Source of the DNA: Shewanella livingstonensis
GTDB lineage: Bacteria; Pseudomonadota; Gammaproteobacteria; Enterobacterales; Shewanellaceae
Assembly: GCF_003855395.1 (NCBI RefSeq)
Contig: NZ_CP034015.1
Span: forward strand, 2,180,001-2,244,000
Direction of reading: 5' to 3'
DNA: 64,000 nt
Shown here: positions 62,491 to 64,000 of the stretch, piece after piece
Numbering within the stretch: position 1 is the first letter of the stretch
Layout: every line of letters starts with the position of its first letter
Program-made: the position numbers and the translations under genes
Notes under the pieces: generated by a model
Told to the model about the DNA's origin: nothing
The model's input: the letters and a program-made list of their open reading frames with translations, nothing else
Database searches by the model: none

Positions 62491-62900
62491 TTGAAACGCT
62501 TTGAAAGTTTAAGTTAGCTGATTTCTCATCTTAATATTGCCTTACAGCAAGAGCTCGATGCACATTTAAAGCGTTATGAGTTGGACTGTAAACTTTGGCC
62601 GATATTGTTTGCACTATGGCAAGAAGAAGGCTTGAGCAAAACTGAGTTATCTAAACGTTGTGATATAGCCTACTACACCATGACGCGCCTTTTGGACAAT
62701 CTACAAATTCAAGGGTTTATTACCTGCCATTAAGAGGCCGACAATCGTCGGGCTTTTCAACTGACAACAGTAAAGCACTATAGCAAGACTTAGTACACGA
62801 AGCCGAGTAGGTAAATGAACGCTTTTAAACTGCGCTAAATCATGCTGAACAGGATGAATTTATGCGTTTGTTGAATAAAATTAATCGATTTAGCCAATAA
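62491..62900 (+). pseudogene. MarR-family regulator pseudogene with several in-frame stops
   Basis: A TTG at 62491 preceded by GGAGG opens a frame reading KRFESLS, then a TAG (62515). The frame continues LISHLNIALQQELDAHLKRYE..LWPILFALWQEEGLSKTELSKRCDIAYYTMTRLLDNLQIQGFI, the MarR winged-helix pattern, then stops with TAA (62731), continues ADNRRAFQLTTVK, and hits TAG (62791). A residual tail (MRLLNKINRFSQ, to 62900) is in a different frame. At least three nonsense codons and one frameshift make a functional protein implausible. Confidence 0.85.
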
Positions 62901-63230
62901 GATTTAATTGCAGCGGCTACCAAGAGAGTTTTGGAGATAGTTTGCTCTGTATATCCCGATCCCGCCATCACTTCCCCCTTTACGTTACCTGTACTGTACA
63001 TCCATACAGTTATAATGGATTTTGAATGAATTACAATAAAACGTGTACAAAAAGCAATCTAAAGTGCTAGAGATGAATAAATAGATAAAATCTAATCTAT
63101 TGATATTAGGTGATTAATTTTTTTAGTATTTAATTTTGGCACTTTTAACGCGCAATCGAAGTTTTATCTCAGAGGTTACGTTTCATTAAATGGCTTTACA
63201 TCAATGAGATAGAGAATGTAGGATGATATT
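62901..63230. other. Region between the MarR pseudogene and the first attC-like site
   Basis: About 330 bases with no gene. It holds the LexA-box-like site at 62992-63011 with an adjoining TATAAT. An 11-base word GCTACCAAGAG at 62916-62926 recurs exactly at 63287-63297, directly after the cassette boundary. An integron integrase gene would be expected to the left on the minus strand, but none is present. Confidence 0.5.
62992..63016. promoter_or_regulatory. LexA-box-like site overlapping a TATAAT promoter element
   Basis: CTGT-N8-ACAG (62994-63009) in TACTGTACATCCATACAGTT matches 16 of 20 bases of the LexA consensus and abuts TATAAT (63011-63016). On the minus strand a GGGGGA and an ATG follow closely (around 62970), with a short open frame. 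SOS control is inferred. Confidence 0.55.
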
Positions 63231-63287
63231 AATCAATAACTTAAACGGCCGGCTTTATTGGGCGAGCCGTTGAATAAGCTGTTAGAG
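63231..63287 (+). other. attC/attI-like recombination site preceding the first cassette
   Basis: An imperfect palindrome CTTAAACGGC ... GCCGTTGAATAAG leads into GTTAGAG (63281-63287), the core where a cassette would join (G^TTAGAGC). The spacing TTGAA-N6-GTTAG is the same as in the aadA-type attC sites. The left core is degenerate, so it may be a decayed attC or an attI. Confidence 0.55.
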
Positions 63288-63717
63288 CTACCAAGAGGAT
63301 GGTGATGGATTCTAGGGAATTGAATGAAATATATGGTTATGAAGCTAGGGTTCAACTGAGCTTTATTTCTTATATGAAAATAGCTTCGATAATTTGTTTT
63401 ACCTTTGCAATTATCGTAACTGTATTTCTTCGCACAATAGTTATTACAACAACCGAACCCGGTATTAATGAATCAACATTAAATACTTGGATGGCTGTTT
63501 ATATGCTTGTTGGCTTTTTCCTTAGTAGCTTTATAAGTTCGGCTATTTCTTATCCCTTATATTCTTTTATCTGTTCTAAACAGAAAGGACAAAGAGTAAC
63601 TGGTAAATTTGCAGTGTTGGTAAGTAGCTCTAACAAGCAAATAAACAAGGACTAAAAACAGCGGGCTGTTCGCTTCGCTCCATTTTAGCCCACTATTTTT
63701 AGCCTGTTATTTGGGCG
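63282..63717 (+). mobile_element. Integron-type gene cassette, complete, 436 bp
   Basis: The cassette begins TTAGAGC after the core G at 63281 and ends with the core G at 63717. Its own attC left core reads GCTCTAAC (63627-63634), the exact complement of the cassette's first bases GTTAGAGC, as expected for a cassette that circularises. It carries one gene and an attC that overlaps the gene's 3' end. This internal match is strong evidence for a real cassette. Confidence 0.75.
63305..63655 (+). CDS. Cassette-encoded membrane protein, unknown function
   Basis: 116 residues with two hydrophobic segments (about 20-44: MKIASIICFTFAIIVTVFL; about 58-85: WMAVYMLVGFFLSSFISSAIS). The N-terminus is charged (MDSRELNEIYGYEARVQ) and the C-terminus basic. 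No family recognised. ATG 63305 is preferred over 63299 because AAGAGG (63293-63298) then has a 6-base spacing. The stop lies inside the attC left arm. Small membrane proteins are common cassette cargo. Confidence 0.65.
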   Translation: MDSRELNEIYGYEARVQLSFISYMKIASIICFTFAIIVTVFLRTIVITTTEPGINESTLNTWMAVYMLVGFFLSSFISSAISYPLYSFICSKQKGQRVTGKFAVLVSSSNKQINKD

Positions 63718-63723
63718 TTAAAT
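63627..63723 (+). other. attC recombination site of the first cassette
   Basis: The left arm GCTCTAACAAG-CAAATAAAC-AAGG and the right arm CCTGTTATTTG-GGC-GTTAAAT pair, then ACTAAAAACAGCGGGCT pairs with AGCCCACTATTTTTAG. The arms cover about 35 paired positions with small bulges and end in TAAC and GTTA core boxes. The R' core is GTTAAAT (GTTRRRY). This is the architecture of an integron attC. Confidence 0.75.
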
Positions 63724-64000
63724 GCCTCTAATCTATAGCACGTATTAGTTTTTGAATTGTGTATTTGAGTTTCAGTGAATTGTGTTTCGTTCGTAAATTG
63801 GTGCGTTGTGGTTTTTCTAAATACGCCCATTCCGTTGAAGCAGACTATTTACTAACAGTCGCCAGTGTAAATTTTAATATCGGAATGCAAAGTAGATTAA
63901 GGCTCCGTTTTTCTTGGTTTTGGTCACTAGCGGAAATTCTGTTTTTAGTTTCTGATTGTTAAATATTGAATGTGTCATATTTTCAAAATATTGAACTAGT
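63718..64000 (+). mobile_element. Second cassette, partial (runs out of the window)
   Basis: It begins TTAAATGCC after the attC core. Its own attC should contain GGCATTTAAC, which is not in the remaining 283 bases, so the cassette continues beyond the window. A frame from GTG 63759 to 63962 exists, but it has no ribosome site and an unusual composition, and I do not call it a gene. Confidence 0.5.

What the first reader, a model, noticed from the sequence alone, without database searches (positions are those of the whole stretch)
63231..64000. Integron-type gene cassette with a full attC and no visible integrase
The attC at 63627-63723 has paired arms of about 35 positions, TAAC/GTTA cores and a GTTRRRY junction. 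The cassette's first bases GTTAGAGC are the exact complement of its own attC left core GCTCTAAC, which is what a circularised cassette requires. Its cargo is a small two-helix membrane protein that I do not recognise. No intI is present within the 900 bases to the left, where the family layout would put it, so this may be an integrase-less cassette cluster (CALIN) or an array whose integrase lies to the right.
Basis: partly seen in the sequence, partly recalled or inferred. Interest (0 to 1): 0.75.

Follow-up and report, generated by a model that had tools for sequence, protein, structure and literature searches.

The report
One integrase, many scattered integron platforms
The gene cassettes at the window's end sit on a copied integron landing site that lacks its enzyme gene; this genome has about 14 such sites and one enzyme gene, and many related genomes also carry many sites, so a bacterium may load captured genes at many chromosome places at once.

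Summary
The attC is real: 94.2 bits, E 1.1e-19, with a Shewanella-trained covariance model (the site is in the training set). Two more attC follow to the right. No intI is near; the genome's only match over the intI cut-off lies 1.15 Mb away.

Window 62950-63284 is a 96.7% copy of the DNA between that intI and its first cassette: six intI codons, a LexA box and attI, ending at the crossover G^TT. The locus is an integrase-less integron with its own attI.

It is not alone. This genome holds 14 strong attI copies; all 13 attC found lie downstream of one, same strand. Of 129 Shewanella-genus genomes, 23 carry at least 5 copies of this attI and 21 others at least 5 of the different SonIntIA-type attI. 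Related copies match to the crossover, then diverge (130 of 151 pairs). Near-identical elements occupy several platforms of one genome.

Best reading: a distributed integron loaded in trans by one IntI. Activity is inferred, the spread of attI is unexplained, and 13 of 44 attI-rich genomes show no intI.

The parts
62950..63284 (+). copied integron platform: intI 5' end, intI promoter region and attI up to the crossover
   Evidence: 96.7% identity over 335 bp to genome 1090805-1091139, which lies between the only intact intI and its first cassette
62951..62968 (-). remnant of the intI start (ATG and five further codons, MAGSGY); homology to the own-genome intI stops at 62950
62994..63009 (.). 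LexA-box-like palindrome CTGTACATCCATACAG (motif recalled), at -291 from the crossover as in the intI-bearing copies
63189..63285 (+). attI core, best-conserved block of the dispersed copies
   Evidence: model R1, 100.9 bits, E 1.5e-28; one of its 13 training sequences
63195..63224 (+). possible cassette promoter Pc (TTTACA, 18 nt, TAGGAT) inside the attI core
   Evidence: consensus match 9 of 12; number of such matches in the region no higher than in shuffles; block conserved among copies
63281..63288 (+). junction GTTAGAGC; crossover between G 63281 and T 63282
   Evidence: homology to the other attI copies ends here
63282..63717 (+). gene cassette 1
   Evidence: bounded by the attI crossover and the attC crossover
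63299..63655 (+). cassette 1 ORF, 118 aa, two hydrophobic stretches (by eye), function unknown
   Evidence: no Pfam match; 6 relatives at E <= 0.001, three at 82-96% identity
63626..63723 (+). attC of cassette 1
63718..64000 (+). start of cassette 2; its attC is outside the window at genome 2244073-2244174

Best explanation
The locus is an integron platform without its integrase: a recent copy of the genome's intI-attI intergenic region, followed by at least three cassettes. It is one of about 14 attI platforms in this Shewanella-genus chromosome. One IntI, made at 1.09 Mb from a promoter with a LexA box, binds attI at any platform and inserts circular cassettes at G^TT. The cassette is then placed behind a promoter in the conserved attI block. 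Shown: the sequences, their number, the precise breakpoint at the crossover, cassette-type ORFs behind most sites, and the same element at several platforms of one genome. Inferred: that IntI acts on the copies in trans, that the block carries Pc, and that the platforms arose as partial copies of an intI-bearing one.
For: The window copy is 96.7% identical to the intI-linked attI. The genome has 14 attI matches at E<=5e-8 and one weaker, against one intI over the cut-off. All 13 attC matches (12 at E<=1.1e-7, one at 0.002) lie 342 to 5542 bp downstream of an attI on the same strand. Of 151 site pairs with more than 330 bp of left homology, 130 end within -5..+6 of the crossover and none passes +22. 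In 55 of 65 sites an ORF of 60 aa or more starts within 120 bp, against 33% of random positions. An intact LexA box at -290 to -294 remains in 15 of 60 copies without intact intI. The pattern repeats with the SonIntIA-type attI: up to 16 copies per genome, none for the reversed pattern; 181 of 200 pairs end at +1..+7; 30 of 40 sites have a near ORF against 34% in the control. A 330-bp ORF-less element has 10 full or nearly full copies in G074 and G058: nine start at an attI crossover, one of them intI-linked, and the tenth starts at the G^TT of an attC-like site. A 2362-bp element is 100% identical at the intI-linked and one dispersed attI of G069.
Against: No recombination was measured. 13 of the 44 attI-rich genomes show no intI match at E<=1e-40, so use in trans cannot be going on there now unless a divergent or imported IntI acts. 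The attC model R2 finds no attC behind 7 of the 14 own-genome attI. Nine of the 13 own-genome attC were in its training set, which came from loci fetched for their attI; the four others also lie downstream of an attI. The 2362-bp element encodes its own recombinase and may move by itself. Site pairs are not independent. The greater conservation of the attI block (88.7% against 80-84% further upstream) is biased because the block was used to find the sites.
Confidence: 0.78

Rival explanations
1. Graveyard: each dispersed attI is the rest of a separate complete integron that lost intI. Cassettes were loaded in cis before the loss and the sites are now inert.
For: intI start codons and LexA boxes remain in families A to C; locus L092 keeps a decayed intI fragment, residues 68-94; 13 of 44 attI-rich genomes lack an intI match.
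Against: Of 65 sites in the held loci only 5 have intact intI, all of family A with homology through intI; in these loci no other family shows intI, yet their first cassettes differ between species. Near-identical elements at several platforms of one genome suggest loading after dispersal.
Confidence: 0.15
2. The attI unit is the right end of an independent mobile element that inserts at random, and the DNA to its right is host DNA rather than cassettes.
For: Upstream homology of several families stops at a family-specific distance, about -400 to -435 in three of them.
Against: attC downstream, ORFs starting close to the crossover, and conserved DNA on both sides of a variable middle in pairs such as L104/L118 and L093/L115.
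Confidence: 0.04
3. Cassettes were inserted at attG sites, ordinary genomic sequences that IntI uses at low frequency.
For: attG insertion is in print (named in PMC12901181 and PMC12444791, passages read; the original paper was not read).
Against: The sites share a block of about 97 bp and often 190-1500 bp further upstream with one another; attG sites are described as divergent from classical att sites (PMC12901181).
Confidence: 0.02

Closest known systems
[quoted passage not shown]
   Same: An integrase-less array starting at a copy of the attI of an integron in the same genome.
   Different: A single case in a cryptic prophage; no further copies, orthologous loci or turnover discussed in what I read.
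CALINs and SALINs of Shewanella (PMC9229058, section 3.4 and passages read)
   Same: Clusters and single attC scattered through Shewanella genomes with and without intI.
   Different: Defined by attC only; the passages shown for the word attI do not tie it to CALINs.
Sedentary chromosomal integron (general knowledge, recalled)
   Same: intI with LexA box, attI, cassettes with similar attC.
   Different: One platform beside intI expected; here many without it.
Delta-attI gene cassettes of class 1 and 2 integrons (PMC12901181, abstract and passages read)
   Same: attI sequence found away from its usual place and usable by IntI.
   Different: There attI replaces attC at the 3' end of a cassette; here attI precedes the first cassette.

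Membership tests
Complete integron | intI next to attI | tested here: not met
   six codons of intI remain; the intact intI is 1.15 Mb away
Complete integron | attI | tested here: met
   96.7% copy of the intI-linked attI
Complete integron | cassettes with attC | tested here: met
   attC in window and two to the right
Complete integron | promoter Pc driving the cassettes | tested here: inconclusive
   consensus match, no more than in shuffles
CALIN | two or more attC in one array without intI nearby (threshold of 2 as in passages of PMC12444791 and PMC9892861) | tested here: met
   three attC within 5.3 kb; no intI over the cut-off nearby
attG insertion | insertion point unlike attI | tested here: not met
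   335-bp attI copy
Delta-attI gene cassette | attI in place of attC at the cassette's 3' end | tested here: not met
   cassette 1 ends in attC; its attI is upstream
Distributed integron (proposed) | IntI recombines dispersed attI in trans | not testable with these tools
   needs a recombination assay

The most novel reading that the evidence does not exclude
In Shewanella the integron is a distributed system: promoter plus attI is a unit that multiplied to as many as 16 chromosomal platforms, with two different attI types and so perhaps independently in two integron lineages. One LexA-controlled IntI loads cassettes, even the same cassette several times, onto all of them. Scattered CALINs and SALINs of this genus would then be working output sites rather than debris.
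Probability: 0.6. Interest if true: 0.88.

Novelty: new variant of a known kind. Interest (0 to 1): 0.77.

Why it matters
Integrons are usually described as one intI with one adjacent attI, so cassettes near that attI are the ones taken to be expressed. If attI is dispersed and loaded in trans, a cell can express many first-position cassettes at once and can place the same cassette in several contexts. This offers an origin for part of the integrase-less arrays. [quoted passage not shown]

Tried and rejected
An integrase to the right: rejected; the tyrosine recombinase there is below the intI cut-off and lies beside an ORF resembling an IS91-type transposase (resemblance recalled; no family search was run on it).

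A strict RYYYAAC/GTTRRRY search for attC in 17 own-genome loci found nothing: this cassette's first bases do not fit it exactly. A relaxed search gave 78 hits, both strands counted, against 33 in one set of mononucleotide shuffles, too unspecific; replaced by models from aligned sites.

Rfam at gathering thresholds: 0 matches in the window.

Empty-site comparison: genome G122 has only about 205 bp between the left and right neighbours of the array, so the array is an insertion, but the G000 junctions could not be placed to the base. In G079 a different, decayed attI (family B) sits in the same gap.

Left ends of the attI units: family-specific, no common terminal repeat seen; mechanism of spread unresolved.

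Defence cargo: the PADLOC scan of 55 first-cassette ORFs (first 25 of 134 families shown) lists at most 3 of 55 members for a family, chiefly AAA or OLD-like ATPases; not pursued.

Counts: the 65 sites are those in loci I fetched, chosen mainly from the best-scoring lines, not all sites of the genus; 13 are from this genome and 52 from nine others. In one search the conservation figures use 64 pairs, after dropping same-genome pairs, pairs above 94% identity and pairs with short left homology. In one search cross-genome pairs of the Son type under 345 bp were dropped from the print. Of the Son-type sites I fetched 7 of 7 in G074, 10 of 13 in G058, 10 of 11 in G040, 9 of 10 in G051 and 4 of 6 in G044.

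Full report
Observation. The attC at 63626-63723, the cassette start GTTAGAGC and the 118-aa ORF are as described. The covariance model was built from 30 sites of this genus, this one included; 13 of its 16 pairs show compensatory changes. Two more attC follow to the right of the window, the first directly before a group II intron-like reverse transcriptase ORF (identity of the ORF by resemblance, no family search).

The genome. The window is 2180001-2244000 of a single 4.84-Mb contig. The genus is Shewanella by inference: same-genus genomes G031 and G066 have contig lengths equal to those of S. frigidimarina KCTC 23109 and Shewanella sp. KJ10-1. The only match over the intI cut-off is at 1089873-1090805, 352.8 bits.

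The copied platform. Window 62950-63284 is 96.7% identical to 1090805-1091139, the stretch between that intI's start and its first cassette. The homology begins six codons into intI and ends at the crossover. The LexA box is kept. Over about 340 bp the window copy is 97% identical to its own genome's attI and 92% to the orthologous attI of G069 and G071, so the copy looks younger than those splits. Relative G122 lacks the array between the same neighbours.

Many platforms. A sequence profile from 13 own-genome copies finds 14 sites at E<=5e-8 and a fifteenth at 0.004; 150 of 3733 first-look candidates were scored. All 13 attC matches in the genome lie 342-5542 bp downstream of an attI on the same strand. 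Nine of the 13 were training sequences of the model; the other four also lie downstream of an attI. That search scored 150 of 2434 candidates, so more attC may exist. Conversely 7 of the 14 attI have such an attC behind them and 7 do not. In the genus 35 of 129 genomes have this attI, 23 of them at least five copies. In a sample of 394 genomes of the order, 16 match: 15 of this genus and one of another at a borderline E of 6e-5.

Behaviour of the sites. The loci I fetched hold 65 sites. Five have intact intI upstream, one a fragment. The upstream regions form families shared between species. In 151 pairs with more than 330 bp of left homology (16 within one genome), 130 end within -5..+6 of the crossover, 21 elsewhere between -19 and +22, none beyond. 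With the left requirement lowered to 60 bp, 4 of 1815 aligned stretches run past +60: three pairs among L090, L091 and L116, which carry the same 2.36-kb element, and L030/L101 at 68% identity. In some pairs the right flank resumes after different cassettes: L104/L118 at 94% and L093/L115 at 95%. In 55 of 65 an ORF begins within 120 bp, against 1715 of 5200 random positions, 33%. Cargo is mostly unnamed; the named ones include an OLD-like ATPase, an Mrr-like endonuclease and acetyltransferases, and three of the 55 are the tyrosine recombinase of the 2.36-kb element.

A second attI type. The SonIntIA-type attI core, printed in PMC9892861, was sought with up to 3 mismatches. It is in 50 of 129 genomes, 21 with at least five copies, the most 16, and no reversed-pattern control match. 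None of these 21 is among the 23 above, so 44 of 129 genomes carry at least five copies of one type. Outside the genus 6 of 364 sampled genomes have 1-3 copies. Of 40 sites in five genomes, 30 have a near ORF (control 1064 of 3120, 34%); of 200 pairs with more than 250 bp of left homology 181 end at +1..+7, 11 at other places from -38 to +25, and 8 run on to +328..+334. The queried core reaches +2, so an end at +2 or later is partly built in. All 8 that run on are pairs carrying the 330-bp element. One pair, L156 of G040 and L166 of G051, has the same 3-kb downstream DNA at 97%, so turnover is not universal.

Same element, several platforms. A 330-bp element without an ORF of 60 aa begins exactly at the crossover at four platforms of G074 (100% identical at three, one of them beside intI; 96% at the fourth) and five of G058. 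Of its 10 full or nearly full copies in these two genomes nine are at attI. The tenth, 4.3 kb downstream of such a site, begins at the G^TT of a sequence that looks like an attC. Two further G058 matches are partial; G112 and G084 have none. That is what a cassette moved by IntI would do. In G069 a 2362-bp element with a tyrosine recombinase is 100% identical at the intI-linked and a dispersed attI; at the latter a second copy follows in tandem, 99.95% identical over the 2108 bp held.

Against the reading. 13 of the 44 attI-rich genomes show no TIGR02249 match at E<=1e-40: G031, G089, G119 and G007, G021, G023, G040, G051, G056, G083, G103, G112, G126. G035 and G122 have intI, but not beside this attI. 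Platforms therefore outlive the integrase, and a short or decayed intI could have been missed at that limit. Activity in trans is an inference from sequence.

Literature. Searches of open-licence PubMed Central papers turned up one precedent, an attI at a CALIN in a Shewanella prophage. In the listings and passages I saw there was no description of many dispersed attI. I did not read those papers whole, and subscription papers are mostly not held, so this is no proof of absence.

Noticed in passing
window 63628-63721: The attC of cassette 1 is 94.7% identical over 94 bp to a site at the gene for metallo-beta-lactamase VMB-1 on two Vibrio plasmid records, hinting that this resistance cassette carries a Shewanella-type attC.
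   Followed up: no
window 62493-62900: A MarR-like gene (name recalled, not searched) just left of the platform appears interrupted: the longest ORF listed there has 50 aa, while relatives keep homologous DNA through its end.
   Followed up: partly
L017:6078-8138 and L019:13108-15167: A stretch with an attC followed by a group II intron-like reverse transcriptase is shared by this array and the intI-linked array at 97% identity.
   Followed up: no
L017:8494-10928: An element with a tyrosine recombinase and an IS91-like transposase ORF (resemblance recalled) lies within both arrays at 94% identity. Another element with a tyrosine recombinase sits directly at attI crossovers in G069 and G031.
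   Followed up: partly
L101:1790-2100 and L030 downstream of attI: Short pieces of about 300 bp follow attI in both; the one in L101 has the same two ends as the 2.36-kb recombinase element of G069 and may be a derivative without the gene.
   Followed up: no
L095:3223-5603: Three attI in tandem within 2.4 kb, with an attC ending about 90 bp before the second.
   Followed up: partly
L150, L172, L173, L179, L184 upstream of attI: Upstream regions of SonIntIA-type attI copies contain internally repeated stretches of about 80-350 bp.
   Followed up: no
genome, up to 1.1 kb upstream of attI at 120691, 2866991, 3157553 and 4513176: A repeated sequence recurs about 260-1030 bp upstream of several attI.
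   Followed up: no
L079 to L088: The gap between the MarR-like gene and the NUDIX-like gene (names recalled) holds about 3 to 31 kb of differing DNA in most close relatives: an insertion hot spot.
   Followed up: partly
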